Of a stretch of 64,000 nt of DNA, positions 6,327 to 63,900 are shown in pieces. Position 1 is the stretch's first letter. Every line of letters starts with the position of its first letter. The position numbers were made by a program, and so were the translations under genes. Below the pieces are notes generated by a model. It made no database searches. It saw nothing but the letters and a program-made list of their open reading frames with translations, and was not told where the DNA came from. This DNA is from Hemileia vastatrix (Eukaryota; Basidiomycota; Pucciniomycetes; Pucciniales; Zaghouaniaceae), in NCBI GenBank assembly GCA_030280995.1, contig JASXTE010000008.1, forward strand, positions 20,821,693 to 20,885,692. Direction: 5' to 3'.

Positions 6327-7465
6327 TGTCAGCCAGGCTATTCCAGGAGTCCAGTAAATGATATATAAATTATAAAACCCTAAAAAGTGGGTAAGACTTG
6401 TATTTAATGAATATAACCTAATATTTTATTGTATAATGAAATTATATAAAAATTTTATTATATACAAGTGTTACATTAAATTTATTGGTTATATATATTT
6501 TTATATACAATTAAATTGAGCATAATATAATAACTTCTACAAATAATGGCGCATTTTTATGTATTTAATAATTATAAATTTATATTTAATTAATTAAAAA
6601 ACATATATTATAATTACAAGTGTAAATTTGATTTATAATATATTTAAATTAATTACTTAAATTTATATATTAAATAATACCTCTCATATGATACTAAACA
6701 ATAATTAATGACGCTTCTTTTGGCCCTTAATTGTGTTAGAAAAAACAAATAAATTAATTTGGACTAAATTGAGATTAATTGCTTGTTTTGTTGCGTCAAA
6801 TTATTTTTTTGTTTCACTTAAAATGTCCTGTAATCAGAATGTACCATCTGTTTGGAATTATATTTCTCATAGTTCCTATGTTTCCAATCTTGTTTAGTTA
6901 TTCACTATTGTCACTTACTGATTTGGGAATTAATGGCGGGGAAATTGGATTCTTGATTGGGCTTTTAATTATTTGTTTCATGTTTTTCTCTATATTGTTA
7001 TGTTTCATTTATTCTTTTGATATGTTTGTTTTATTCCATTCTAATCATTGTATTTACAAATATAGTAGCGCTTCAGAGGACCCATTGCCTATAAAAGGGC
7101 CTTGGATAATCCCCTGTAGCCGGATCACTTATTACACACTCAACAAATTAAATAACCAATTTATTACGTTTATATTTTTTTTTATTAGTAATACAAATCT
7201 AACTTAAATTCTATACAACAAATCAAAGGTTGCTTTAAGTCTGATAGTAATTAAAATTGTTTGCCGCGCAGAACCCTTACATTTAATAATATTATTGTTA
7301 ATAAAAACCAAGTTTTTGTCACCTCTCAAAATTGCTCACCGTTGTTTCCCTCTCAAATAAATTAAATATATATTTTTGGTTTATTTATTTATTTTCCCTT
7401 GTCCTCCTACTTCTCTCCTCCTTTTTCTCCTATTTTTCTTACCTCTTCTAGACGACTGACCGACA
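6327..7465 (+). repeat. 5' LTR of chromovirus A
   Basis: 1139 bp, starting TGTCAGCCAGGCTA and ending CCGACA. The start is shared with the LTR of element B (minus strand from 44090), which places A and B in one family. It contains a TATA box at 7090. Confidence 0.95.
7090..7098 (+). promoter_or_regulatory. LTR TATA box (element A)
   Basis: TATAAAAGG. The same box with similar flanks (CCTATAAAAGG) occurs in the element B LTR at 43552-43560 on the minus strand and in the 3' LTR of A at 15120-15128. It is a likely core promoter for the element's RNA. Confidence 0.65.
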
Positions 7466-8153: not shown

Positions 8154-8893
8154 ATGTCCAACAATTTGGCAGAAAAAATGGATAACATGCAAGTGGATGA
8201 GATAGAAATTGACTATGATGCTGACACTGTAAGTTCTTCTAAAGTTGGTCATAAAAAATCTTATGCTAACACAAAGAATTCACATACTGCAGGATGTGGA
8301 AATGACAGGGAATGCAAACAAACCAAACCCCCTTCCCCCAGTACCACAGAAGGAAGTAAAGCCTCTAGTGCCTCAAGAAGGTCTTCCAAAAGGCTTCAAA
8401 ATAAAAAAGCTTCCTCTGCCACAACAAATCAGCAACCTATCCAGTCATATAAAAGAGTTGAAGACAGAAAATATGACGTACAAAGCAAAGGTAGAAACAT
8501 TGTGGGATCAGGTCCAAGAACTCAGGAACCAGATTCAGGCCCAGGCCCCTCCTCAATTGCCTCCCAATCAGCTTCAATTTCAGGCTCAACCTTCACAGCC
8601 ACCCAGCTCAACCATCCAAAATCCAAATACTATGGAAGTAGAGCAATGGAAATGGGATTATCTAATGAGTCACTACCAACAGAATGTGCAACACCCTCCT
8701 CATCATCAGCCTGGCCCATCCAGAACACCCAATTTCCATCCACCTCCTCATCCCTACCAACAAAGCAGGAGAAAGAAGGCCCAAGCACAATCCCAAACCC
8801 AGTCCCAGGGGAAGTTTCCTCCTCTGCCATGGTAAGTAATTTGGTTGATAGTCACTTGGGTATGTTTTCTAATAAATCTTCTTCTGCAGGTAA
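8154..8893 (+). CDS. Overlapping spliced accessory ORF of chromovirus A (predicted 205 aa)
   Basis: Proposed exons are 8154-8228, 8293-8831 and 8890-8893. The first 25 codons are those of gag. A GTAAGT donor at 8229, a GCTAAC branch site and a CAG acceptor at 8290-8292 then shift reading by one frame at a codon boundary, starting DVEM. The frame stays open about 180 codons and ends PLPW-stop; the Trp codon spans the second junction (GTAAGT at 8832, CAG at 8887-8889). Visible content: GFKIKK and HIKELKT (helical, basic), a Pro/Gln-rich middle, a WKWDYL motif, GPSR, PPHPYQ and a basic RRKK. Element B has the same exon structure and a better conserved protein in this frame than in gag. The function is unknown; it could be an RNA-binding or regulatory accessory protein. 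Expression is inferred, not shown. Confidence 0.7.
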
Positions 8894-11800
8894 TATTATT
8901 GAACATGGTGAAAGAACAGTTAAACCTGTTAAAAGACAGCTTCCTGTAACTAGTAGCCCTATTGATGTAATTAGCAAATTGTCATTTGATGAACCTTTAC
9001 ATTTAACTTCTACATCTTTAATTAATCCTTCTCTTGCAATTAAAAATGATTCTGTTCCCCCTGAAATCTATAACTTAATTGAAAAAACTTCTGAGGAAAT
9101 ATTGAAAGATACCCTTGATTTTAATATTGTGAAAGACAAACATGTGAGAGACGTGTTAATCCATGAAAATGATAGATTAAATAATTTACACTTGCAATGT
9201 AAAGTGAGTTCTTCTGTACAAGATACAGCTTATTTAAAAATCAAAGAAATCTTGAATATTGTTCTTAGTCAACAAAAACAAATAAGAAGTGACCATAGAG
9301 CTATCTCAGATAGAAATATCAGTCTACATAAGACCTTGAGTGAATTGAAACCCCTTATTGAGGAAAATTATTCATTCAAAAATGAAATAAAATCTCTGCA
9401 AAATGAGTTTAAGAAGCTAAAAAATGATTTCCATGCACTAAGTACCAAGCACTCAGTTTCTGAGGACAGAAATGTTCTATCTCTTGCAAAAGTAAATGAC
9501 CAGATGTCTGAAATTCCAAGAATAAGAAACTATGTGTCTGACCTACAGGAAAAGTTTTCAACCTTAACCATCAATAATGAATTAAATGAGATTTCTGCAA
9601 ATAAGCTGCATAAAAATAAAGGGAAAAAACCTGAACAAAGTTCATCCTTTCTTCCTCATATTTCAACCATTAAACAAACTGACAATGAGTCTGTAAAATC
9701 TTTTGCTACTAGCAAAAAATCTTGTGATGGTCATGCACCAGCTGTTTCTGTAAATAATGAAATTTCTGAACACCTGGCTAAACTTCAGGAATTATTACTA
9801 ATAAATAATTCAAACCAAAAAGTGGACCATCCCAGTAGTCAGAAAAATTGGCCTAAGTTAGACCAATATCCTACCTTTGATGGTGATTCTTCCTCTGATT
9901 GGCAACACTTTATCCAGAGAATTGATAATTTAAAGAGATCTTATAAACTACCTGATGAGGAAATTGTTTCTAAGCTAATTTCTTTATTTTCCAATGTAGC
10001 CTTGATGTGGTATGAATCTGTCCTCTTAGATAACAATCATTATACATGGAATGATTGGAAATCCTTGATTGAGAATCAGTTTGGTGGTTCAAAATTCAGG
10101 TTAGCTCAGCAAAGACTGTATGAGAATACTAGATATGTATCCTCCTCTGTTGAAAAGCCCATTGTTTTTCTGATGAAAATAACTAAAATCCTTAGAGCAA
10201 TTGATCCAAAGATGGATTATGATACTTGGAGAGATAAAATCTTGTATAAATTACCAAATTCTCTTAGGGATTTGATTGTTGCTAGAACTGAGCATGTAAG
10301 GGAAAATTCTTCTTTCATTAATATCTGTAATGAAGTACTACTCAACCATAGATATGAACCAAAGAATTACCTTAGTAAATCTTATAATGATCAAAATAAT
10401 CCTTCTATAAAGCTCCCAGAAAAATCTGGTAAACCCTCTGCCCCAGTTGCACCTAAAAAATATGCAACAAATACTTGTTATAAATGTAACAAACCGTGGC
10501 AGAAGGGTCATGTTTGTGACAAGAAAATTCATCTTGTTGAACAAAATGAAGACACTGATGAAATTGAACTTGATGTCAATAATTCTTCCAGTGACTGTGA
10601 AAGTAATATCTCCTATGACAATGAATCTGTTAAAGATGTTTTAATGTTGGAACATGATGTCCATTATTTAAATAATATATCTGAAGATTGTGTATTGAAT
10701 TTATCTTCAGTAGAAAATGCTGAGATAATTAAAGATATTACTAACAATTCTATTCCTATATCCCCTTTAAAGGCACCTGTTATCATTAATGGTAAAAATG
10801 TTGATGTAGTTCTTGATTCTGGTGCTGGAGGAAGTGTAGTATCTGAAAAAGCTTTGGCTTCAGTGGATAAGGAATATTTGAGTAAATTATTGCCTATAAC
10901 TTCTGAAAAATGGAGAGGGTATGGTTCGACCTTATTTCCTATTGGCAAATACAAAACCTCTGTATTCTTCAAATATAATGGTGGTTTTGTCAGAGCTATT
11001 TGTGAGTTTGTTGTCATGAAAAATGATAATTTGAGCAATTGGTTTATTATGGGAAATGATATTTTAACCATGTTTGGTGTGAAACTGGACCCAGCAAATA
11101 ATTGCTTTACCTTAGGAATGAATGGGAAAAGAAAATTCAAAATTTCTTTGCCTAAACCTTCTGGGCATTTGTTGAAATCTTGTAACTCACTGACCCAATG
11201 TAAAGGTAGAACAACAACTGAAATGGATGCTTTATTACATGAAATAAATACCGCTTCTTTTGGTGATCATTTGACTAATGAACAAAAGGATTCTATTGTT
11301 GCCTCTATTACCTCTTTCCCTATGGCTTTTGCTCATGGTTCTCATGTCTTGGGAATTGTTCAGGAAGAGATGAAAATTACCTTATCCTGTAATTTGAGTG
11401 ATATTCCTCCTTCCCTTAAGAAAAAACCATATCCTGCTTCTCCATCAAAAAGAAAAGATATTGAAGATAATATTGAAACATTATTGAAAATGAATATCAT
11501 TGAGAAAGTGAATGTCACCCCCAAATATTGTGTCATCTCCCCAGTCTTGATTTCATATGAAAAAGATAAAGCTAGATTATGTGGAGATTACAGAGCTTTA
11601 AATACTTATACTGTTGATGATATTTATCCTTTACCCAGAATTAATTCAATAAATGCTACCTTGCAAGGTGCAAAATTTATTAGTTGTCTGGATGGTAATA
11701 AAGGTTATCATCAAGTTCCAGTTGAGAAAAATTCTCAAAATTTTTTGCTTATTGCTACTCATATGGGAATATATAAGTATGTTAGGATGCCATTTGGCCC

Positions 11801-14321
11801 TAAAAATGCTCCTTCAGTTTTCCAGAAAGTCATGGATAACACTTTCCATCAAGAAATTTTTGAAGGTTGGCTCATGGTTTATATTGATGATATTATTGTT
11901 TTTTCTAAAACTTTTGATGAACATATGATTCACTTGAATAGAGTTTTCCAAAAAATGGATGAAATCAATATGACCTTATCTTTAAAAAAGTGTAAATTTG
12001 GTTTTCAATCTTTGAAAGTCCTTGGCCATGTTGTGTCAGGCTTACAAATTTGTGTAGACCATAATAAAGTTGCTGCCATTCAAAATGTTAAAGCACCAAC
12101 TTCTGTAAGAGAAATCCAAAGTTTTTTGGGTATGTGTGGCTATTATAGACAATATATTAAAAATTATCAGGTCATAGCCTTGCCTCTTACAAAACTAACC
12201 AGAAAAGATGTTGCTTTTCTCTGGAATGATGACTGTCAGAAAGCTTTTAATACATTGAAAAATTGCTTAATGACAGCCCCTATATTGGCTCTCCCAGATT
12301 TTAACAAGCCATTTGTACTTTATACAGATGCTAGCTTTATTGGTCTGGGTGCTGCCCTTCACCAAAAGCAAATTATTAATGATAAATCCTCAGAGGTTGT
12401 AATTTGTTATATTTCAAGAACCTTAAGGAATAGTGAATTGAAATATGGTGCCACTCAATTGGAGTGCTTAGCAGTTGTTTGGGCTCTTGAGAAACTTCAT
12501 TACTACTTGGATGACCAAAAATTTGAGTTGGTAACTGACTGTAGTGCTGTGAAATCTCTCTTAAACCTCAAAACGCCTAACAGACATATGTTCAGGTGGC
12601 AACTTGCTGTTCAGGAATACAGAGGAAGGATGACTATTATCCACAGAGCTGGAAATGTTCACTCTAATGTTGATATGCTCTCCAGATTGCCTCTGCCAAA
12701 TAATGACTCCAATCCTGCTTATGTACCTGAGGATAACACTGTTCATATACATGGTATATTTATAGTTGATATGGAAGAAGAGTTATTACAGTTAATACTG
12801 GATTCATATGATAAAGATTCTGACTTAAATAAATTAGTTACTATTTTGAATGATCCTAAGAATGCTTCAATTCAAGCATTAATAAAAACTCTTCCTGCAA
12901 AGTACCAAAATGCTTTAAATAAAGGAAAGTTTTCTATTGAAGATGGTTATATATATTATAGAAGGAAGCTTACCAATGTAATTGTTATTCCTCCTTCAAT
13001 GAAAGAAACTATCCTCAAACTTTGTCATGATGACATATTAGCTGGTCATTTTGATCTTGAAAAAACATTGATTAGAATCAAAAACACTGCATGGTGGGCT
13101 AATATGTCTGAAGACACAAAATTATATGTTGAATCTTGTGATTCCTGCCAAAAATCTAAAAGGTTAACAGGTAAGAGAGCAGGGTTATTACAACATATTG
13201 AAGCACCTAGTGCTCCCTGGCAAATCATTAATATGGATTTTGTCACTGGTCTTCCTGTTGCAGGTAAAGACAGCTTTAACTCTTGTTGGGTAATAGTTGA
13301 TAGATTCACAAAAATGTGCAAATTTATTCCAACCCACAAAGATGTATCCACCAAGGAATTAGCTTTCTTATGGTGGTCTTACATGTTTAATATTATTGGT
13401 TTTCCAAAAGCCATTATCTCTGATAGAGATCCAAAATTCACTTCTGAGTTTTGGACCTCTTTGATGGATATTTGTGGCTGTGAGTTAAAATTGTCTACAG
13501 CTCATCATCCTCAGACTGATGGTCTAGCTGAAAGAATGATTCAAACTCTGGAAGATATGATTAGAAGGTATTGTGCCTTTGGTTTAGAATATAAAGATAA
13601 TGACAGATTTACTCATGATTGGGTCACTCTTTTGCCTGGTCTTGAATTTGCATATAATAGCACTGTTCATTCTGTCACTGAGAAAAAGCCTTTTGAGCTT
13701 TGGTTAGGTTATGTCCCAAACACTCCTGCTCAAATTCTCAATAATAAATTACCTAAGTTGGAACTGCACCCTGGTGTAAAATCTTTTATGCAAATGCAAC
13801 AGCTATGCAGAAAACATGCTCAGAGTTGTATTGATAAAGCATTTGAATATGAAAAGAAAAGATGGGATAAATCCCATAAAGAATACACATTTAACAAGGG
13901 TGATGAAGTGTTGATCTCTACTGTCCATTTCAATTTACAAGGTAACCACAAATTAAAAGATCCTTTTGTAGGACCATTTGTTGTTAAAAGAATGGTTGGT
14001 GATAATGCAGTAGAAGTTGTATTGTATTCTCCATATGATAGGAAACATCCTGTCTTTCCCATTTCTTTGCTTAAACCTTATACTTCCAACAGTGACTTAT
14101 TTCCAAAAAGAAGAGGAAGACCTAAGAAGAACCCTCAGGAAGTCACAGAAACAGCAGAAATTGATAAAATTCTCAATGATAGAATTATCACTTCTGAAAG
14201 AGGTACTGAATATTTATTGAGATATAAGAACAAATCATCTGAACATGATGCATGGATACCTGGCAAGGAAATTTCAAATCTGCCTGCTCTGTTGAAAAAA
14301 TACAAAAAGAAAAAATCTTAG
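8154..14321 (+). CDS. Gag-Pol polyprotein of chromovirus A, 2055 aa, intact
   Basis: A single frame encodes every function of a Ty3/gypsy chromovirus. Order: long Ser-rich N-terminus with basic RRSSKRLQNKK near residue 75; coiled-coil-like region (about 300-480); Gag capsid domain (about 565-750); zinc knuckle CYKCNKPWQKGHVC (near 773); aspartic protease with DSGAGGSVV (near 887). RT with YIDDIIVFS follows (near 1242), then RNase H with YTDAS (near 1389), an H2C2 integrase finger (near 1622) and the integrase core. In the core the second catalytic Asp of SDRDPKF and the Glu of GLAERM are separated by exactly 35 residues. The C-terminus has an AT-hook-like KRRGRPKKN (near 1985) and a chromodomain (about 2002-2052). 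No frameshift separates gag and pol. The ATG at 8154 is chosen because the matching ATG in B gives the same acidic 24-25-residue start. Confidence 0.95.
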   Translation: MSNNLAEKMDNMQVDEIEIDYDADTVSSSKVGHKKSYANTKNSHTAGCGNDRECKQTKPPSPSTTEGSKASSASRRSSKRLQNKKASSATTNQQPIQSYKRVEDRKYDVQSKGRNIVGSGPRTQEPDSGPGPSSIASQSASISGSTFTATQLNHPKSKYYGSRAMEMGLSNESLPTECATPSSSSAWPIQNTQFPSTSSSLPTKQEKEGPSTIPNPVPGEVSSSAMVSNLVDSHLGMFSNKSSSAGNIIEHGERTVKPVKRQLPVTSSPIDVISKLSFDEPLHLTSTSLINPSLAIKNDSVPPEIYNLIEKTSEEILKDTLDFNIVKDKHVRDVLIHENDRLNNLHLQCKVSSSVQDTAYLKIKEILNIVLSQQKQIRSDHRAISDRNISLHKTLSELKPLIEENYSFKNEIKSLQNEFKKLKNDFHALSTKHSVSEDRNVLSLAKVNDQMSEIPRIRNYVSDLQEKFSTLTINNELNEISANKLHKNKGKKPEQSSSFLPHISTIKQTDNESVKSFATSKKSCDGHAPAVSVNNEISEHLAKLQELLLINNSNQKVDHPSSQKNWPKLDQYPTFDGDSSSDWQHFIQRIDNLKRSYKLPDEEIVSKLISLFSNVALMWYESVLLDNNHYTWNDWKSLIENQFGGSKFRLAQQRLYENTRYVSSSVEKPIVFLMKITKILRAIDPKMDYDTWRDKILYKLPNSLRDLIVARTEHVRENSSFINICNEVLLNHRYEPKNYLSKSYNDQNNPSIKLPEKSGKPSAPVAPKKYATNTCYKCNKPWQKGHVCDKKIHLVEQNEDTDEIELDVNNSSSDCESNISYDNESVKDVLMLEHDVHYLNNISEDCVLNLSSVENAEIIKDITNNSIPISPLKAPVIINGKNVDVVLDSGAGGSVVSEKALASVDKEYLSKLLPITSEKWRGYGSTLFPIGKYKTSVFFKYNGGFVRAICEFVVMKNDNLSNWFIMGNDILTMFGVKLDPANNCFTLGMNGKRKFKISLPKPSGHLLKSCNSLTQCKGRTTTEMDALLHEINTASFGDHLTNEQKDSIVASITSFPMAFAHGSHVLGIVQEEMKITLSCNLSDIPPSLKKKPYPASPSKRKDIEDNIETLLKMNIIEKVNVTPKYCVISPVLISYEKDKARLCGDYRALNTYTVDDIYPLPRINSINATLQGAKFISCLDGNKGYHQVPVEKNSQNFLLIATHMGIYKYVRMPFGPKNAPSVFQKVMDNTFHQEIFEGWLMVYIDDIIVFSKTFDEHMIHLNRVFQKMDEINMTLSLKKCKFGFQSLKVLGHVVSGLQICVDHNKVAAIQNVKAPTSVREIQSFLGMCGYYRQYIKNYQVIALPLTKLTRKDVAFLWNDDCQKAFNTLKNCLMTAPILALPDFNKPFVLYTDASFIGLGAALHQKQIINDKSSEVVICYISRTLRNSELKYGATQLECLAVVWALEKLHYYLDDQKFELVTDCSAVKSLLNLKTPNRHMFRWQLAVQEYRGRMTIIHRAGNVHSNVDMLSRLPLPNNDSNPAYVPEDNTVHIHGIFIVDMEEELLQLILDSYDKDSDLNKLVTILNDPKNASIQALIKTLPAKYQNALNKGKFSIEDGYIYYRRKLTNVIVIPPSMKETILKLCHDDILAGHFDLEKTLIRIKNTAWWANMSEDTKLYVESCDSCQKSKRLTGKRAGLLQHIEAPSAPWQIINMDFVTGLPVAGKDSFNSCWVIVDRFTKMCKFIPTHKDVSTKELAFLWWSYMFNIIGFPKAIISDRDPKFTSEFWTSLMDICGCELKLSTAHHPQTDGLAERMIQTLEDMIRRYCAFGLEYKDNDRFTHDWVTLLPGLEFAYNSTVHSVTEKKPFELWLGYVPNTPAQILNNKLPKLELHPGVKSFMQMQQLCRKHAQSCIDKAFEYEKKRWDKSHKEYTFNKGDEVLISTVHFNLQGNHKLKDPFVGPFVVKRMVGDNAVEVVLYSPYDRKHPVFPISLLKPYTSNSDLFPKRRGRPKKNPQEVTETAEIDKILNDRIITSERGTEYLLRYKNKSSEHDAWIPGKEISNLPALLKKYKKKKS
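8229..8292 (+). other. Putative intron 1 (element A), 64 nt
   Basis: It starts GTAAGTTCTTC, has GCTAAC about 20 nt before the end, and ends ACTGCAG. Length and signals match the other introns in the window. Its counterpart in B is 42080-42137 (58 nt, starting GTAAGTTCT). 64 is not a multiple of three, so retention keeps Gag-Pol in frame while removal switches to the overlapping frame. Confidence 0.7.
8832..8889 (+). other. Putative intron 2 (element A), 58 nt
   Basis: It starts GTAAGTAATTTGG, has TCTAAT before a pyrimidine-rich stretch, and ends CTTCTGCAG. The counterpart in B is 41540-41597, also 58 nt. In both copies the first downstream bases are G TAA, giving Trp-stop across the junction. 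Confidence 0.6.
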
Positions 14322-14356: not shown

Positions 14357-15495
14357 TGTCAGCCAGGCTATTCCAGGAGTCCAGTAAATGATATATAAAT
14401 TATAAAACCCTAAAAAGTGGGTAAGACTTGTATTTAATGAATATAACCTAATATTTTATTGTATAATGAAATTATATAAAAATTTTATTATATACAAGTG
14501 TTACATTAAATTTATTGGTTATATATATTTTTATATACAATTAAATTGAGCATAATATAATAACTTCTACAAATAATGGCGCATTTTTATGTATTTAATA
14601 ATTATAAATTTATATTTAATTAATTAAAAAACATATATTATAATTACAAGTGTAAATTTGATTTATAATATATTTAAATTAATTACTTAAATTTATATAT
14701 TAAATAATACCTCTCATATGATACTAAACAATAATTAATGACGCTTCTTTTGGCCCTTAATTGTGTTAGAAAAAACAAATAAATTAATTTGGACTAAATT
14801 GAGATTAATTGCTTGTTTTGTTGCGTCAAATTATTTTTTTGTTTCACTTAAAATGTCCTGTAATCAGAATGTACCATCTGTTTGGAATTATATTTCTCAT
14901 AGTTCCTATGTTTCCAATCTTGTTTAGTTATTCACTATTGTCACTTACTGATTTGGGAATTAATGGCGGGGAAATTGGATTCTTGATTGGGCTTTTAATT
15001 ATTTGTTTCATGTTTTTCTCTATATTGTTATGTTTCATTTATTCTTTTGATATGTTTGTTTTATTCCATTCTAATCATTGTATTTACAAATATAGTAGCG
15101 CTTCAGAGGACCCATTGCCTATAAAAGGGCCTTGGATAATCCCCTGTAGCCGGATCACTTATTACACACTCAACAAATTAAATAACCAATTTATTACGTT
15201 TATATTTTTTTTTATTAGTAATACAAATCTAATTTAAATTCTATACAACAAATCAAAGGTTGCTTTAAGTCTGATAGTAATTAAAATTGTTTGCCGCGCA
15301 GAACCCTTACATTTAATAATATTATTGTTAATAAAAACCAAGTTTTTGTCACCTCTCAAAATTGCTCACCGTTGTTTCCCTCTCAAATAAATTAAATATA
15401 TATTTTTGGTTTATTTATTTATTTTCCCTTGTCCTCCTACTTCTCTCCTCCTTTTTCTCCTATTTTTCTTACCTCTTCTAGACGACTGACCGACA
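14357..15495 (+). repeat. 3' LTR of chromovirus A
   Basis: 1139 bp, the same as the 5' LTR except T at 15233. It is followed by the target duplication TATAT (15496-15500). Confidence 0.95.
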
Positions 15496-39300: not shown

Positions 39301-40628
39301 ATGCTCAATGCTGCAAATCAGAAAGACCCAAGGTAGTACAGAATTCTTCATGCTTTTGACACCACAGAGATTTTGTTAATAAATCAGCTAACATTTCAGT
39401 TGTAGGAATATAATTTAATTTTAACAACTTAGAATCAATTGCTTCACGTATCCGGTGAAGTCTTAAATTGACGTGCCTTGTTCAATGTTGATACAGAGGA
39501 TTTTTGGCCAATGAAATTGCACCTTGATTGTTGCTATTCAATGTTGGAACATTATGTTAGATTTGTAAACCTTCAAATAGTTGATTAAACCATGTGAGAT
39601 CTTGGCCATTTTCAGATATGGCAAAATATTCAGCTTCTGTAGTTGAAAGAGCAACAATTTGTTGCTTTCTTGATCTCCAACCTTGTAGACCATTATGAAA
39701 CACCAAGGCCCCAAAGTAGATTTACATCCAATTGAAGAACCCCAGTCAGCATCTGCATAAACATCAATGTTATTAGTGAATTTTAAACCTGTTAAAGTAA
39801 TTCCAAAATTGCAAGTTTTTTGTAAATAACAAAGGACATGTCTAAAATGCAAAACATGATCTCCAGAAGGATTCTTGAGAAATTGTGACAAAGAGCTTGC
39901 AGAAAAAGCCAAATTAGGTCTTTTACAAGAGACTAAGTAATTCAATAGGCAAATAGCTCGGCGATAGTTGAAATTACAAATAGGTTAATTGGAAGCTTTG
40001 GAAGTAAATTTGACGTTTGGAACCAATGGAGTGGAGGCAGTATGGCAATCAGACATGTTAAATTCATCCAACATGTTTATGATATAGATAGGTTGAGATA
40101 AATAAAACTCTTTCTTTTCTCAGTTTCTAGTTACCTTCATGCCCAATATCCATGATAACTCTCCTTGATTTTCCATTTCAAAATAAGTTTTAAGAAGATT
40201 TTTAATTTTTGTGACATTCTTGGCACATATAACTAAATCATTGACATGAATAAAAATGAAGCAAGGATCTTCCCTTGAGAGATTAGAAAAGACACATGGA
40301 TCCGCAGGATTAGGAGAGAAAACAATAGAAGCAAAATAATTTTTAATACATTTAAACCAGCAACAAGGACTCTTTTTAAGTCCATACAAAGATTTGTAAA
40401 GTTTAAGACATGTATTAGGATTTTGAGAACCATTATATCCTTCAGGGTACCTAATGTATATATATTCTTCTGGGACACCATGGAGAAAAGCAGTTCAAAC
40501 ATCCATCTGATTTACCTCAAAATTATTTTGTGCAGAAAAACTCAAAAGAGTTTGTATGAAACAAGTCAACCAGTTGGAGCAAAAGTATCATTGTAGTCAA
40601 TGCCTTCCATTTGAGAGAAGCCTTGAAC
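39301..40628 (-). pseudogene. Copia G RT C-terminal part and RNase H
   Basis: It starts VQGFSQMEGIDYNDTFAPTG at the junction with B (40628), then MYGLKKSPCCWF. The RT active site is FIHVNDLVICA near 40240: VDDL has become VNDL in the context GTCAAT, a CpG-type transition. 39538-39945 holds the RNase H region. Several stops. Confidence 0.75.
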
Positions 40629-42209
40629 AGGGTACTGGTCAAGTTTTGGCCAATTCTTTTGATTTGAAGGAGTCTCCTTAGTACTAGCTTGTTTCTGAGT
40701 AAGAAGCAGCTGTAATTTCTCTAATTGTGCTGAAATCTCATTGTTTAATCCTTCTGTTGCAGATCCTGGTGCATCATCAGTTTTTGATGGAAAATCAGTG
40801 TTATCAACAGGTATTTCTGGAGCTATTTTTACTTTAGATGAACTAGCCACAGGTACTATTTGAGCATCCTGCACTATATGTTCCTTCACAGAATTTTCAG
40901 AATATTTTTGGTCATTTAACAATGAGTTCAATGTTTCTTCAATGGTTGTTAGTCTTGTTTTCATTCTTGGAAGACTAGATAAACTTTCATTGATAGTTGC
41001 AAAAGATAATTGGTTTTTATGTTGAAAAGATGACAAATGGTCACTCAATCTTTTCAGATTTATCTTATCTATTTCTACCTCCTGGCAACAGGCAGATACA
41101 GTATCTTTTAGTTTAGACAAATCATTTTTTATATTTTGCCATAAAGCAATTTTCATTTCATGGGTTGCTTTGTAATGAGACAATTCATCAGAGACTCTCT
41201 GTGCTTCACTTTTTAATGCTTGATAACCCTGATCAGTTAAAAAATTATTATATCTCTGAGTCAATTGCATATTGTTCATTATATGATTTTGCTTGGCAAT
41301 AATATCTCTCAAGTGCTCATCATTAATTCTTGCTAAATCTGGAGTGTTTCTCAATAAGGAAACTGAGTAACTTTCCAGACTCTCATAGAACTCAGGGTCA
41401 AGAGTTTCATCAATCACAGCCATATCAGGATTAATCATTGAGGTAGCAATTAAAAGTAATGGATTGGATACATGAGATAACTGTCTACTATTCCCAGCCT
41501 CTATAGGTCTCAAGGTTTCATCCTGCCTTCCAGATTTACCTGAAGGAACAGAGTCAGCCACAAGAAAAGGCACTTGAGAATCAATAGAGGGACGTACCAG
41601 GGTTTGCTGGGTATCACCATATTGGGCTTCCTTCTTCTTTTGCCTCCTTGATAAGGGTGGGGAGGAGTGGGGTTGGCCTGGGTGGGCCTTGATGGACCTA
41701 CCTGAGGTAACTGATGCTGATTTTGAGCTAAGTAGTCCCACTGTGTGTTGAGCCAGTCCCACTGCCACTTGGACACTTCCACCATCTCTTGGGATTGGGG
41801 AGCCAATTGTTGTTGATCCCTGGGAGGAAGAGGTTTCCTTTTCTCTTGGAGAGAAGTATTTGTTCTTTTCTCCCTTTCTTCCAAGGCATCTACCCTTACC
41901 TTTAGTTTCAAGCTGTCTGTCTTTAACTCCTTTATGTGGGTTGACAGATTCTTTATCTGCTGGGACAACGGCATCTTTTTTATCTTGAAGCCTCTTGGAA
42001 GCTCTTCTGGTGGGTTTGTCCTGGGCTTCTGATCCTGAGTATTGTCCACTAGGATTTCTACTTCTTCCATTTCTACATCCTGTTTGGGGCAAGGATTTAT
42101 TAGTTTGAGAAATTCTTCTTGTTAAAGGAGAACTTACAGAAGTAGGCTCATCATAATCAATTAAGTCTAGTTCTTTTTCACGTGCAGCAAAACCACTTTG
42201 ATCAGTCAT
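40566..42209 (-). CDS. Chimeric ORF: chromovirus B Gag N-half fused in frame to copia G RT
   Basis: A 547-aa open frame starts at the ATG at 42209. Residues 1-527 match the N-terminal Gag of chromovirus A: acidic start, RRASKRLQDKK, coiled-coil region and NQKNWPKLDQYP at the start of the capsid domain. It then passes without a stop into copia RT, VQGFSQMEGIDYNDTFAPTG. The junction is at 40628/40629. It arose because B is truncated and its broken end lies in copia G. The chimera has neither a complete capsid nor a complete RT, so a function is doubtful, but the frame is open. Confidence 0.8.
   Translation of the reverse strand: MTDQSGFAAREKELDLIDYDEPTSVSSPLTRRISQTNKSLPQTGCRNGRSRNPSGQYSGSEAQDKPTRRASKRLQDKKDAVVPADKESVNPHKGVKDRQLETKGKGRCLGRKGEKNKYFSPREKETSSSQGSTTIGSPIPRDGGSVQVAVGLAQHTVGLLSSKSASVTSGRSIKAHPGQPHSSPPLSRRQKKKEAQYGDTQQTLVRPSIDSQVPFLVADSVPSGKSGRQDETLRPIEAGNSRQLSHVSNPLLLIATSMINPDMAVIDETLDPEFYESLESYSVSLLRNTPDLARINDEHLRDIIAKQNHIMNNMQLTQRYNNFLTDQGYQALKSEAQRVSDELSHYKATHEMKIALWQNIKNDLSKLKDTVSACCQEVEIDKINLKRLSDHLSSFQHKNQLSFATINESLSSLPRMKTRLTTIEETLNSLLNDQKYSENSVKEHIVQDAQIVPVASSSKVKIAPEIPVDNTDFPSKTDDAPGSATEGLNNEISAQLEKLQLLLTQKQASTKETPSNQKNWPKLDQYPVQGFSQMEGIDYNDTFAPTG
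41536..42209 (-). CDS. Overlapping spliced accessory ORF of chromovirus B (predicted 185 aa)
   Basis: Proposed exons are 42209-42138, 42079-41598 and 41539-41536. As in A, a GTAAGT donor follows codon 24 at a codon boundary. The acceptor CAG (42082-42080) opens the +1 frame with DVEM. The frame contains ELPRGFKIKKMPLSQQI, HIKELKT, KWQWDWL, GPSR and PPHPYQ. The second donor GTACGT (41597-41592) and acceptor TTCAG (41540), with CTGAC upstream, give PW-stop. Unspliced, this frame would read on for about 27 more codons, so splicing is needed to reach the same end as in A. The function is unknown. Confidence 0.68.
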
Positions 42210-42361
42210 TTTAAGATTCTACTGAAATGAAGGAAAAGAGACAAAAAATTAATTAGTCTTTATTTTTAATTTTTATTTAACAGAAATAAAATAAAAATAA
42301 TAAAAAAAATCTTTTTAGGATAAAAATCAACTTTAATAAAATTAATAAAAAAAATTTAAAA

Positions 42362-42808
42362 CCAGGATAATGCAATCAACTGTAGAAATAAATTAGAATT
42401 TCTATTAATTTTTATTTTCAGGATTTAAATCAACTAATTTATTACCAGGATTTATTGTCAACTGAAATAATCAAATATGAATCTTTATTAATAAAAATTA
42501 TTTTAACTGATTACTTAACTACCAGGACTTAATGTCAACTGAAGTAATTTAAATATGAATTTTATTACTTAAAAAGATTTATTGGATTTCCAGGACTCAA
42601 AGTCAACTGAAGTAATGAAATGTTAATTATTTATTAAAAAAAAATATAATTGTCAGGACAATTTGTCAACTGGAACAATTAATTAATCAGGACAAATGTC
42701 AACTGAAAAATTATAATAATTATTTTATTTAATAAAAAATATTATTGTCAGGACAGTTTGTAAACTGGAACAATTAAAATTCAAATTAATCAGGACAATT
42801 GTCAACTG
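42362..42808 (-). repeat. Array of ~9 palindromic units in the B leader
   Basis: The plus strand has repeated CAGGACAATTGTCAACTG-type units (starts near 42362, 42419, 42446, 42533, 42591, 42654, 42688, 42749, 42791). The core GACAATTGTC is a perfect palindrome in the best copy (42793-42802). Spacers are AT-rich and vary from 27 to 87 bp between starts. The units lie between PBS and gag, where packaging or dimerisation signals are expected. Confidence 0.75.
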
Positions 42809-43251
42809 AAAAATGATAATAATTAATATTAATATATAATTATTTTATTACCTCTGGGACTAAGAACAGTTATTGCTCTATTATGGTCAACCAGGAAAAA
42901 TAAAAAAAAATATAATAATAAAAATAAATTCCAATTACCAGACACCTCCCCCTGCAAAATGAGCAAATTAATGCCACTTACAGAGTGCTGAGTAAAAGGA
43001 AATACGTAGCAAATGAAGAGTGAAGAGTAACCCACAAATAGTAATCACAATAATTACCACGATATATACGATCTTTAGTCAGTATATGAACTTAAGTTTT
43101 GGAGCGCGGTTCGATTCCCGTTCGCAGCAAAAAACTTTTATCACGTGATGTATGACGTTCATCGTTTTCTCGCTTCCACTCGTCCTTTACAGGTACTTGT
43201 ACGCCGATGGTCCCCTCGATTACGCCTCAAGTAACGTTGCGCCGTCGATAT

Positions 43252-43267
43252 TTTGGAAAGGATCCCA
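43252..43267 (-). other. Candidate primer-binding site of chromovirus B
   Basis: The minus strand reads TGGGATCCTTTCCAAA two bases after the LTR end, matching the A site in position and in its CCTTTCCAAA half. Confidence 0.55.
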
Positions 43268-43269
43268 AT

Positions 43270-44090
43270 TGTCAAGGGTCACTTTTGGTCTAGAAGCTTT
43301 GGTACAGTATAATATGAAGATTTTAAGGATTATTTGACTCTCAAAAGTTAGGTACGTATTTCTCAATCAAGTATGATTTCTTTTACTCAAAGTAAGAGGT
43401 AGATTTAAATATTTTATATAATTTATAGAAAAGAATTACGTTTATTGTAAGTACTAAAGATATAAAATATAATAAATAAGTTTTAGTGTTGTTGTTATTG
43501 TAATAAATGAGTTGGTAAAATAGAATGATCAAAAGACAACAAAAAGAGAGGCCTTTTATAGGCAAAGGAGAGACAAAGCACGGAAATCAAATTCTAAAAA
43601 CAGTAGGAAGAGAGAGAGAAAAAGAACATTCCAGAAAGAGTATTTCAAATAATAAAGTTATTCCAAAAAGAAGGCGTCAAAAAGATGTATTTACAGAGTA
43701 TGTCAGAAATACATCAATATTTTTAATATTTACTGTAAATGTCAATCCTAAATAAGAAATTTGATTTTTTTGTTTATATTTAATATTATTTGAATATTTA
43801 AATCTTATTTTATCTTTGTATTTTATTTTTTAAATATAAAGTTTTATTTTTTCCCAACCTGTCAAATGAGCACGGTGTTAGAGAAAAATATAAGGGACAA
43901 AATTATAATTATAATTTTACTTATTTATTTAATTAATTAATTTAATTTTAACATTCTGTAACTAGTTAATTTATAACTAATTTTAATGTAACTAAATGAT
44001 AATTAAATAATAATTAAAGATAATAAGGTGCGGCTTCATCCAGTAAATAATTAATTATTTCACTGGGTAAGTCTAGTAGCCTGGCTGACA
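43270..44090 (-). repeat. 5' LTR of chromovirus B (821 bp)
   Basis: On the minus strand it starts TGTCAGCCAGGCTACTAG and ends CTTGACA, with a TATA box TATAAAAGG at 43560-43552. It is shorter than the A LTR and similar mainly at the ends and around the TATA box. Confidence 0.82.
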
Positions 44091-60925: not shown

Positions 60926-63900
60926 AAAAGAGATTTCTAAGGTTTTGTTTTAAAGGATATTTAAGATGAAAAGATTTTAGGAGTTCAGGGGTGTTAGAAA
61001 CATTGATGGCTGGCTCCCAGGATGTTTTGACTGAGTCATTGAGGAAGCCTTCCCATTTTAATAGGTATTGAAGTTTCCCCTTGTGCATTCTTGAATCAAG
61101 AATACAGCTTACTTCCCACTCTAGATGGTCTTCTACTTTGACCGGTTCCGGAGGAGGTTGGTTCCTTCCCGGGTATGTTTCTCGAGCCAGTTCCAGGAGA
61201 GATACATGAAAAACAGGGTTAATAGCCTTCCATTTAGGAGGTAGCTTGAGTCGAAATGCAGTTTTAGAGACTTCGGAGTCGATTTCAAATGGTCCCAAGC
61301 GTTTTTCAGCCAGTTTCTTTGATGGTCAAGTCGTTCAAATTTTTTGTGCGTCGAGCCATACTTTGTCACCTGGTTTAAAAGAAGGAGCAGATTGTCGATG
61401 TTTTTTGGCCTGTTCCTTGTACCTTCGAATCTCTAATTCCAAGTTTGATTTTAGTTCCTCTTGGAGTCATGATATGGTTCAAAGATAATGTTCAGCAGGA
61501 TGACTAGTTCCTACGTGGATTGAGTTGAATCGAGGATGTCTTCCATAAACAGTTTCAAAAGGAGATTGTCTTGTCGAAGAATGAGTCAAGTTATTATAAG
61601 TAAATTTGGCCAATGGTAACCATGTGATCCAACTTTCATGTTGGTAACTGACATACATTCAAAGGTATTGTTTGAGGATTTGGTTGACCCTTTCCGTTTG
61701 CCCATTGGTTTCAGGATGATAGGCCGTGGAGAGATTCCTCGTGATATTGAGTTGTCGACACAGTTGAGTCCAGAATGTGGATACAAATAACAAGCCTCTA
61801 TCTGAAATAATATCATTGGGTAATCCATGTTTGGAAAATACATATTCTAGAAACAATTTTGACAAATCTTCTGCTGTAGCAGTAGTAGTGGTTTTAAAAA
61901 AATAAGCATCTTTGAAAATCTATCTACTATTACTAATATAGCATCAAAATTATTAGAAAGAGGAAGTTGAGAAATGAAATCCATCGATAAAGATTCCCGA
62001 GGTTTAGAGGGAATAGGAAGCGGTTGAAGCAACCCATGCTTCCGGTGACGGGGAGCCTTATTCCTATTACATTTGTAACAAGCTCTTATATAGGCCTTGA
62101 TTTCTCTGGTCATTCCTGGCCAGAAGAAATCCCTCGCTATTAACTGGTAGGTTTTATCAACCCCAAAATGACCAGCTAATGGAGAATCATGTCGACTATT
62201 GAAAATCCATATTTTTACTTCATTGTATTGGGTATGACTACTCTACCTTCAAAAACTAATAGACCTGATTCAATACTGAATCTTTTGGCCCCTTGCTTCA
62301 AGAGTATTTTGTCTTTTAACCCTAAATAATAATTGTCCTTCGACTGAGCTTCGAGGATGTTGGATAATGGATTTTGAAAAGATTAAATTGTCATTGAATT
62401 AAGTTGATGAGTCTTTAACATTGATTTGTTGAAGATTGATTTCACATTTGCTGGGTTCTTGTCAGCAAATGCGTCCCCCCGCTGTGGATAAACATTTTCC
62501 CGAGGTGACAAGGTATCTGGGACAATACAGTTCTTACCTGGGTGATAGGAAATAGAAAAAGGAAATTCAGACAGAAATTCAGCCCACCTGGGTTGATGCC
62601 TGGTTAACACTTTGGAAGACATAAAGTATTTCAAAGCATTATGGTCTGTTAGAATTTAAAAAGGACTACCTAGGCTGAGAAGAAAAGAGCACCTTTTTTT
62701 GAGACAATGAATAATAGCTAAAAGCTCCTTGTCATGAATTTCATAATTTAATTATGCTGCAATGAGTTTGTGCGACTCAAAAGCAACAGGATGAAACAAT
62801 TTTGTTTCAGGATTGAATTGAGAAATGACTCCTGCAATAGCATAATCGCTTGCATCTGTCTTGACTATTGTCAAAGCAGAAGGATCAAAGTGTTGAAGAA
62901 TTGGAGCTGTGGTGAACGCCATCTTCAATGCTTCAAATTCCTTTCATGCTGTAGCAGTAAAAACAAAAGGAATATATTTTCTAAGAAGAGAAGTAAGATT
63001 GGAAATAGTTTTAGCGTAATCTTTGAAAAATCTTCTATAGAAATTTGCAAAACCCAAAAATCCTTGGAGGGATTTAATGGTTTTGGGCTCAGGCCATTCC
63101 AGGACTTTTTGGACCTTTTTGTTGTCCATGACTAAACCATCAGTAGATAACATAAAACCCAAAAAATCTATTGATTTAAGATGGAATTCGCATTTATTGT
63201 GTTTAGCGTAGAGTGCGTGATCTCAAAGTCAATTTAGAACTTGTCGAACATGATGAATATGTTCATCCAGTGTCTTTGAGAAAATTAAAATAATGTCTAA
63301 GTAGACGACAACATCTTGAAAGATGTCATTGACAAAAGTTTGAAAAGTCAATGGTGCATTGCACAATCCAAAAGGCATAACTAAATATTCAGAACTACCA
63401 AATATAGTGCACATTTCAGTCAGTGGTTCATGACCTTCCGCAATGCGAATAAGATTGTAATTGCCTCTAAGATCAATTTTAGAAAAGAAATTAGCACCAT
63501 TGAAAAGAGTAAGAAGCAATGACATAGGAGGAACAGGGTATGCATTCTTCTTAGTGACTGTGTTGAGCTTTCTATAGTCAACACACAACCTAAGGCTACC
63601 ATCCTTTTTCTTTACAAAAAGAACAGGGGAGCCGTTTGGAGATTTACTGGCTCTGATGAAACCTTTGGCTAAATTCTCTGCAATGTAATCTCAAAGAAAT
63701 TGAGATTTGTCCTTCGACAAAGAATAGACAGGACCTGCCGGAGGTACTGGACCTATTAACTCTATTTGATGGTCGTAGGGTTGATGCGGTGGTAACTTAT
63801 TGGCCTTGCGGATTAAGAAAACATCAAGGAAATCATGATAGATTTCCAGTAGAGTTGATTTAATGGCTTCAACATTGACTTGGTCGTCCTCATCATCTTC

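What the first reader, a model, noticed from the sequence alone, without database searches (positions are those of the whole stretch)
8154..8893. Spliced overlapping gene hidden inside the gag of a fungal chromovirus
Within element A, removing a 64-nt GT-AG intron after gag codon 25 switches translation exactly in phase into a +1 frame. That frame is open for ~180 codons and ends Trp-stop at a second 58-nt intron. Element B (41536-42209, minus) has the same start, both introns at matching positions and the same Trp-stop end. Between A and B, a ~40-residue block (from LPxGFKIKK) is 26/40 identical in the overlapping frame, while the gag frame over the same bases is about 16/41. That is the opposite of what is expected if only Gag were under selection. 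The model: retained introns give Gag-Pol, and splicing gives a 185-205 aa accessory protein sharing Gag's N-terminus. Complex retroviruses use such a strategy; I know of no fungal LTR element described this way.
Basis: partly seen in the sequence, partly recalled or inferred. Interest (0 to 1): 0.96.

Follow-up and report, generated by a model that had tools for sequence, protein, structure and literature searches.

The report
Spliced hidden gene inside fungal gag
A fungal LTR retrotransposon carries, inside its gag gene, a second and better conserved reading frame that splicing would join to the start of gag to make a small extra protein; dozens of genomic copies lack exactly the predicted introns, so this splicing very likely happens, and the protein may help the element's unspliced RNA leave the nucleus.

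Summary
Element A (8154-14321) is an intact-looking chromovirus with one 2055-codon gag-pol frame. Two predicted GT-AG introns (8229-8292, 8832-8889) lie at the same places in the diverged element B. Removing intron 1 joins 25 gag codons to a +1 frame; the spliced products are 205 aa (A) and 185 aa (B).

Two tests favour the model. First, searches of the window's own 747.6-Mb genome for the exact exon junctions found places lacking intron 1 (A 17, B 29) or intron 2 (A 28, B 37); reversed-pattern controls gave 0. Intron-1-only, intron-2-only and double losses occur in both families. One double-loss element has both LTRs and a 5-bp target duplication, so a doubly spliced RNA was probably reverse-transcribed. 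Second, the overlapping frame is the constrained one: dN/dS-like ratios 0.21-0.55 in 30 (non-independent) pairs, against 0.36-1.55 for gag over the same bases. Gag is still kept open.

No RNA or protein was seen. Function is inferred: most likely export of intron-containing RNA, as by Rev or nematode CERV. CERV of Cer1 is a close precedent in layout, so this is a new variant; no fungal case was listed in seven paper searches.

The parts
6327..7465 (+). 5' LTR of element A
   Evidence: 1139 nt, one mismatch to the 3' LTR; TATAT on both sides of the element, in an AT-repeat context
14357..15495 (+). 3' LTR of element A
8154..14321 (+). gag-pol ORF of A, 2055 aa, reading through both introns
   Evidence: RVT_1, RNase H, Integrase_H2C2 and Chromo above Pfam cut-offs, rve and protease below them
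8154..8228 (+). exon 1 of A: 25 codons shared by Gag and the spliced product
   Evidence: junction to exon 2 found at 17 genomic places
8229..8292 (+). intron 1 of A, 64 nt, GTAAGT..CTAAC..CTGCAG, stop-free in the gag frame
   Evidence: missing exactly in 17 of 17 copies read
8293..8831 (+). exon 2 of A: overlapping +1 frame inside gag (180 codons with the split Trp codon)
8832..8889 (+). intron 2 of A, 58 nt, GTAAGT..CTAAT..CTGCAG, stop-free in the gag frame
   Evidence: exon 2|exon 3 junction at 28 places
8890..8893 (+). start of exon 3: last base of the Trp codon, then TAA stop of the doubly spliced product (with intron 2 kept, the TAA at 8833-8835 is read instead)
40566..42209 (-). gag-frame ORF of element B, running into copia-like sequence at about codon 527
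42138..42209 (-). exon 1 of B, 24 codons
   Evidence: junction at 29 places
42080..42137 (-). intron 1 of B, 58 nt
41598..42079 (-). exon 2 of B: overlapping frame
41540..41597 (-). intron 2 of B, 58 nt; its removal creates the Trp-TAA end
   Evidence: exon 2|exon 3 junction at 37 places
43270..44090 (-). 5' LTR of B (start TGTCAGCCAGGC; the inner end is read by comparison with its relative in L039/L041)

Best explanation
The 5' end of this fungal chromovirus's gag is an overlap of two conserved or kept-open reading frames, and splicing at two small introns would switch translation from Gag-Pol to a likely accessory protein of 185-205 residues that shares only Gag's first 24-25 residues. Unspliced RNA keeps both introns, which are stop-free in the gag frame, and would give Gag-Pol and the genome. 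RNA that has lost intron 1 reads the overlapping frame; in A the stop comes straight after the same Trp with or without intron 2, in B the Trp-stop end needs intron 2 removed. Shown here: frames, intron-like signals, conservation, selection in the overlapping frame, and genomic copies lacking exactly the predicted introns. Inferred: that those copies come from spliced RNA, and that the protein is made. Inferred with less certainty: its job. It has an acidic start, one confidently predicted 42-residue helix that reads as a coiled coil, Pro-rich stretches predicted as unstructured, a second weakly predicted helix (around EVxxWxWDxL) and a basic tail (KRRRK / RRKK). The mechanism I commit to is Rev- or CERV-like: a self-associating basic protein made from spliced RNA that helps the intron-retaining RNA escape splicing and leave the nucleus.
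For: Junction searches: exon 1|exon 2 at 29 B and 17 A places, exon 2|exon 3 at 37 B and 28 A places, reversed controls 0 in all four. Copies read: 17 of 17 A and 29 of 29 B places lack intron 1 exactly; 8 of 17 and 8 of 29 also lack intron 2; of intron-2-only places 15 of 21 (A) and 6 of 31 (B) were read and all keep intron 1. One double-loss element has LTRs 98.9% alike and TACTT on both sides. Frame-specific conservation: 95/144, 92/143, 54/142. Overlap ratios 0.26-0.47 in 12 B-lineage pairs and 0.21-0.55 in 18 A-family pairs; gag 0.36-1.12 and 0.41-1.55. Gag open with the overlap protein fixed: 0 of 5000 (A), 3 of 5000 (B) shuffles. Helix 42-83 of A exon 2, block pLDDT 84-94. Export role by analogy with CERV (PMC10309623, passages).
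Against: No RNA or peptide evidence. No relative of the spliced protein in the protein database. Of 21 intron-1-lacking B copies with ungapped exon 2, 7 have a stop in the overlapping frame and 3 in gag (third frame 21 of 21): decay after insertion would explain it, but it does not favour the overlapping frame. Intron-2-only copies are as common as intron-1 losses, and their RNA would give only a truncated Gag end (245 aa in A, 213 in B), so not every splice product serves the model. In B, RNA lacking only intron 1 would give a longer tail instead of Trp-stop. The intron-lacking label clusters on the tree (6 changes, shuffles 13-24), so not every place is an independent event. Nothing here tests export.
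Confidence: 0.7

Rival explanations
1. The overlapping protein is real but is not an exporter: it acts on Gag, for example as a coiled-coil assembly partner, RNA chaperone or copy-number control, and splicing only sets its dose.
For: It shares Gag's first residues and has one confident long helix and basic stretches; such features fit several roles. No export test was possible.
Against: Only 24-25 residues are shared with Gag, so it is not a simple dominant-negative Gag fragment; the need to export an intron-retaining RNA favours an export role by analogy with CERV.
Confidence: 0.35
2. The introns are real but the overlapping product is a by-product: splicing is noise or a way to switch off Gag-Pol, and the conservation reflects RNA signals or base composition.
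For: Intron-2-only losses are common and lead only to a truncated Gag. The open frame alone is not rare.
Against: Conservation follows overlap-codon positions, with the wobble position the most variable; RNA signals would not produce a three-base period. The Trp-stop end is shared by A and B.
Confidence: 0.08
3. The overlapping frame is normally joined to the rest of Gag-Pol by an alternative splice of intron 2, so it is an N-terminal domain of a Gag isoform and not a separate protein.
For: My junction searches look only for the predicted junctions and could miss another acceptor.
Against: Removal of the predicted intron 2 gives a stop in both A and B, and the intron-2 losses read are of the full 58 nt.
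Confidence: 0.06
4. Chance: an open +1 frame in T-poor sequence with splice-like motifs.
For: With the gag protein fixed the frame is open in 19% (A) and 6% (B) of codon shuffles.
Against: Exact junction copies with zero control matches and frame-specific conservation.
Confidence: 0.02

Closest known systems
CERV of Cer1, a Gypsy/Ty3-type LTR element of Caenorhabditis (PMC10309623; passages read)
   Same: Spliced mRNA; N-terminal exons in the gag frame, one exon in another frame overlapping gag; leucine zipper and basic motif; gag-pol in one frame without a stop between them; the genomic RNA keeps usable splice sites.
   Different: [quoted passage not shown] here two introns wholly inside gag and a 185-205 aa product that ends inside gag. 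Host a nematode, not a fungus. Sequence relation was not tested directly.
Rev/Rex of complex retroviruses (recalled; abstracts in the listing only)
   Same: Regulator from spliced RNA, overlapping other genes, basic stretch and self-association.
   Different: No sequence relation known; position in gag differs; export activity untested here.
BARE1 of barley (PMC3735527; abstract and outline seen)
   Same: One gag-pol frame and a spliced subgenomic RNA.
   Different: BARE1 splicing favours an RNA encoding only Gag; here intron 1 removal leaves the gag frame.
Gag-pols of Puccinia striiformis and other Pucciniomycotina
   Same: Same broad pol lineage; the listed P. striiformis proteins are 33-37% identical, most over about 99% of residues 560-1500.

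Membership tests
Ty3/gypsy chromovirus | RT - RNase H - integrase order and a C-terminal chromodomain | tested here: met
   RVT_1, RT_RNaseH, Integrase_H2C2, rve (28.8 bits, below its 32.6 cut-off), Chromo 31.0 bits (cut-off 25.1) in this order
Ty3/gypsy chromovirus | LTRs with TG..CA ends and 5-bp target duplication | tested here: met
   A: TATAT on both sides, in an AT-repeat context; a related double-loss element: TACTT on both sides
CERV-type spliced accessory gene of an LTR element | N-terminus shared with gag | tested here: met
   25 (A) or 24 (B) codons
CERV-type spliced accessory gene of an LTR element | An exon read in another frame within gag | tested here: met
   exon 2
CERV-type spliced accessory gene of an LTR element | Spliced mRNA | tested here: inconclusive
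   Only genomic copies lacking the introns were seen; no RNA
[quoted passage not shown]
   The product ends at a stop after exon 2
CERV-type spliced accessory gene of an LTR element | Sequence homology to CERV | not tested
   No direct comparison was made; database profile search found nothing at E <= 1
Rev-like regulator of complex retroviruses | Nuclear export of intron-containing element RNA | not testable with these tools
   -
Rev-like regulator of complex retroviruses | Basic stretch and self-association region | tested here: inconclusive
   Basic tail and a 42-residue helix predicted; binding and oligomers untested
BARE1-type subgenomic RNA | Spliced RNA still encodes Gag | tested here: not met
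   Removing intron 1, alone or with intron 2, leaves the gag frame in A and B

The most novel reading that the evidence does not exclude
A fungal chromovirus is organised like a complex retrovirus: two tiny introns inside a dual-coding gag act as a switch, with spliced RNA giving a Rev-like regulator and intron-retaining RNA giving Gag-Pol and the genome. The regulator is a fungal-lineage invention, independent of Rev, Rex and CERV.
Probability: 0.35. Interest if true: 0.92.

Novelty: new variant of a known kind. Interest (0 to 1): 0.84.

Why it matters
Spliced accessory genes that overlap gag are a hallmark of complex retroviruses; outside them the case I found is CERV of the nematode element Cer1. 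A fungal example in an abundant, young element family would suggest that the strategy arises repeatedly in LTR elements, and it makes a question directly testable: how a fungus exports an intron-retaining retrotransposon RNA. It also shows a useful trick: intron-lacking copies in the same genome can check predicted introns without RNA data. Annotation that masks elements or keeps one ORF per element would miss such genes.

Tried and rejected
Protein database: spliced A protein, 43 candidates, none at E <= 0.01; profile of five spliced proteins, 1642 candidates, none at E <= 1. Viral contigs: exon 2 alignment, 224 pattern matches, no relative; gag-pol A and P0014, no match. A leader intron 5' of the ATG was considered: in L046/L047 one block covers leader and exon 1 (window-B reference 372-1973; 94 gap positions in the identical L022), so no exact leader intron loss was seen, but the leader is repetitive and this is not excluded. 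A bacterial promoter scan is irrelevant here. The neighbouring chromovirus-like element (60960-63630, extended as L089) shows an ordinary-looking gag start and no comparable frame in the ORFs listed. The young-B comparison (overlap ratio 0.07) was dropped because those copies had been picked by overlap-protein similarity. The structure model has mean pLDDT 62.5, pTM 0.27, from two sequences; only the long helix is trusted and no fold search was run. Subfamilies without A- or B-like junctions were not reached: the pattern search for them did not complete. Intron-bearing copies were not counted, so no fraction of intron loss is given. The host was guessed from memory (a rust; name looked up) and not tested.

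Full report
WHAT IS THERE. The window lies in a 747.6-Mb assembly of 791 contigs (G000:C2:20821693-20885692). Element A is a full-length LTR element: LTRs 6327-7465 and 14357-15495 differ at one of 1139 bases, with TATAT on both sides. Its single ORF 8154-14321 (2055 aa) carries reverse transcriptase, RNase H, integrase zinc finger and chromodomain above Pfam cut-offs. The 740-nt stretch of the finding gave 1469 first-look candidates in the genome, of which 40 were scored, all over their full length at about 100% identity, so family A looks abundant and young. Element B (minus strand) has a 5' LTR from 44090 and a gag frame from 42209 that runs into copia-like sequence at about codon 527.

THE OVERLAPPING FRAME. 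Removing intron 1 joins 25 (A) or 24 (B) gag codons to a +1 frame. With both introns removed, A gives 205 aa ending PPLPW and B 185 aa ending SKPW. In A a TAA follows the same Trp whether intron 2 is kept or not; in B only after intron 2 is removed, which itself suggests that intron 2 is used. All four introns are 1 mod 3 long, have no gag-frame stop and contain CTAAC, CTAAT, CTAAT or CTGAC 18-27 nt before their end.

NOT JUST AN OPEN FRAME. Exon 2 is T-poor, so an open +1 frame is not rare: with the gag protein fixed and its codons shuffled it stays open in 19% (A) and 6% (B) of 5000 trials. The reverse is rare: with the overlap protein fixed, gag stays open in 0 of 5000 (A) and 3 of 5000 (B). 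So gag seems to be kept open, while the residues under constraint are mostly in the overlapping frame. In an alignment of A and B made on nucleotides alone, exon 2 identity by overlap-codon position is 95/144, 92/143 and 54/142 (p 6.5e-7). Guided by protein, overlap identity is 68/157, gag 37/157 on the same columns and 43/153 aligned by itself; downstream gag is 97/284.

SELECTION IN BOTH FAMILIES. I sorted single-base differences by their effect on each frame and divided by opportunity (kappa fixed at 2.5). In 12 chosen pairs of B-lineage copies the overlap ratio is 0.26-0.47 and the gag ratio 0.36-1.12. In 18 A-family pairs they are 0.21-0.55 and 0.41-1.55. Pairs share sequences and are not independent. 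All partners of L009 in the B set are intron-1-lacking copies, in which gag is no longer read from the ATG, which may raise their gag ratio; in family A the intron-1-bearing copies L096, L098 and L102 give, against A, overlap ratios 0.21-0.24 and gag ratios 0.41-0.98. One set (27 young B copies against L010; overlap 0.07, gag 0.85) was dropped because it had been chosen by overlap-protein similarity.

GENOMIC COPIES WITHOUT THE INTRONS. A protein search with B exon 2 scored 150 of 20589 candidates, all 98-100% identical; by my count of the table 12 of 150 have one stop. Of the 30 copies fetched, two lacked both introns exactly; they are one event, since 13.4 kb around them are identical. The other 28 keep intron 2. 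I then searched the genome for the predicted junctions with up to 3 mismatches. Exon 1|exon 2: 29 B and 17 A places. Exon 2|exon 3: 37 B and 28 A places. Reversed-pattern controls: 0 in each of the four searches. Reading the copies: 17 of 17 A places lack intron 1 exactly and 8 of 17 also lack intron 2; 29 of 29 B places lack intron 1, 8 of 29 lack both and 21 keep intron 2. Of places lacking intron 2 and not in the intron-1 list, 15 of 21 in A and 6 of 31 in B were read, and all keep intron 1. Some places are not independent (L046/L047; probably the neighbours L083/L084 and L087/L088, about 8 kb apart).

INDEPENDENCE AND MECHANISM OF LOSS. On a tree of 57 B rows (one intron-lacking place entered twice, as L021 and L046; rows L030 and L058 have aberrantly long branches), intron-1-lacking copies L045, L046, L055, L059 and L061 sit among intron-bearing ones. 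The label changes 6 times (shuffles 13-24): losses recur, but the label also clusters, partly because intron-bearing copies were sampled only near B. The double-loss element read in full has LTRs 98.9% alike over 825 nt and TACTT on both sides. The simplest reading is that spliced element RNAs were reverse-transcribed and integrated by the element machinery. Eight of the 17 A copies keep the complete 205-codon frame. Against: of 21 intron-1-lacking B copies with ungapped exon 2, 7 have a stop in the overlapping frame and 3 in gag, and RNA lacking only intron 2 would give a truncated Gag of 245 (A) or 213 (B) aa.

THE PROTEIN. Five spliced sequences share an acidic IDYD..T start, DVEM, a (G)F(K/R)IKK motif, a region of which exon 2 residues 42-83 are predicted as one helix (block pLDDT 84-94), Pro/Gln-rich parts, an EV..WD motif, GPSR, PPHPYQ, a basic tail and a final PW. 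Pfam gives only a weak bZIP-type match in A, below its cut-off. No relative was found in the protein database. The gag-pol itself is related to proteins of Puccinia striiformis (33-37%), Austropuccinia and Rhodotorula among others (182 hits, 120 listed), so the host is probably of the Pucciniomycotina; no tool named it.

HOW IT LIKELY WORKS. Unspliced RNA must leave the nucleus with two usable introns to make Gag-Pol. A small basic coiled-coil protein made only from spliced RNA is the layout of Rev and Rex (recalled) and of CERV in Cer1, where export of the unspliced RNA requires CERV (PMC10309623, passages). I favour an export or splicing-control role at about 0.35-0.4; a role in assembly or copy-number control is the main rival. 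That the spliced protein exists and is functional I hold at about 0.85; the 0.7 given for the best explanation blends the two.

NOVELTY. CERV shares gag-frame exons and has an exon in another frame, so the kind is known. What differs is the lineage, the compact two-intron design wholly inside gag, and the dense genomic record of intron loss. Seven paper searches listed no fungal LTR element with a spliced overlapping accessory gene; the library lacks most subscription papers, and of the listed papers I opened three (passages of PMC10309623 and PMC7264820, abstract and outline of PMC3735527).

Noticed in passing
L090-L104; B places: Copies lacking only intron 2 are at least as common as copies lacking only intron 1 (A 21 places against 9). 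Their RNA would give a truncated N-terminal Gag (245 aa in A), perhaps a third product or a dead end.
   Followed up: partly
G000:C2:8196145, 8204090, 8212035; L083/L084; L087/L088: Copies about 7.9-8.2 kb apart in the same state look like tandem elements sharing LTRs.
   Followed up: no
window 42210-43000: The untranslated leader of B holds imperfect repeats of a GTTGACA..TCCTG unit, and related copies differ there in length. Function unknown.
   Followed up: no
window 40566-44090: B sits inside a copia-like element, and its 3' part is missing where copia-like coding sequence resumes.
   Followed up: partly
P0014, metagenome protein of 2107 aa: Its N-terminus DEDLLDYEDPNDTTMQDAP resembles exon 1 (DLIDYDEPTS|DVEM) and is followed by a Ser/Arg-rich stretch that could be the shadow of another frame. 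No DNA was available.
   Followed up: partly
window 60960-63630 and L089: A separate, ordinary-looking chromovirus-like element, with a gag start MAPVQRTLPTG and no comparable frame in the ORFs listed.
   Followed up: partly
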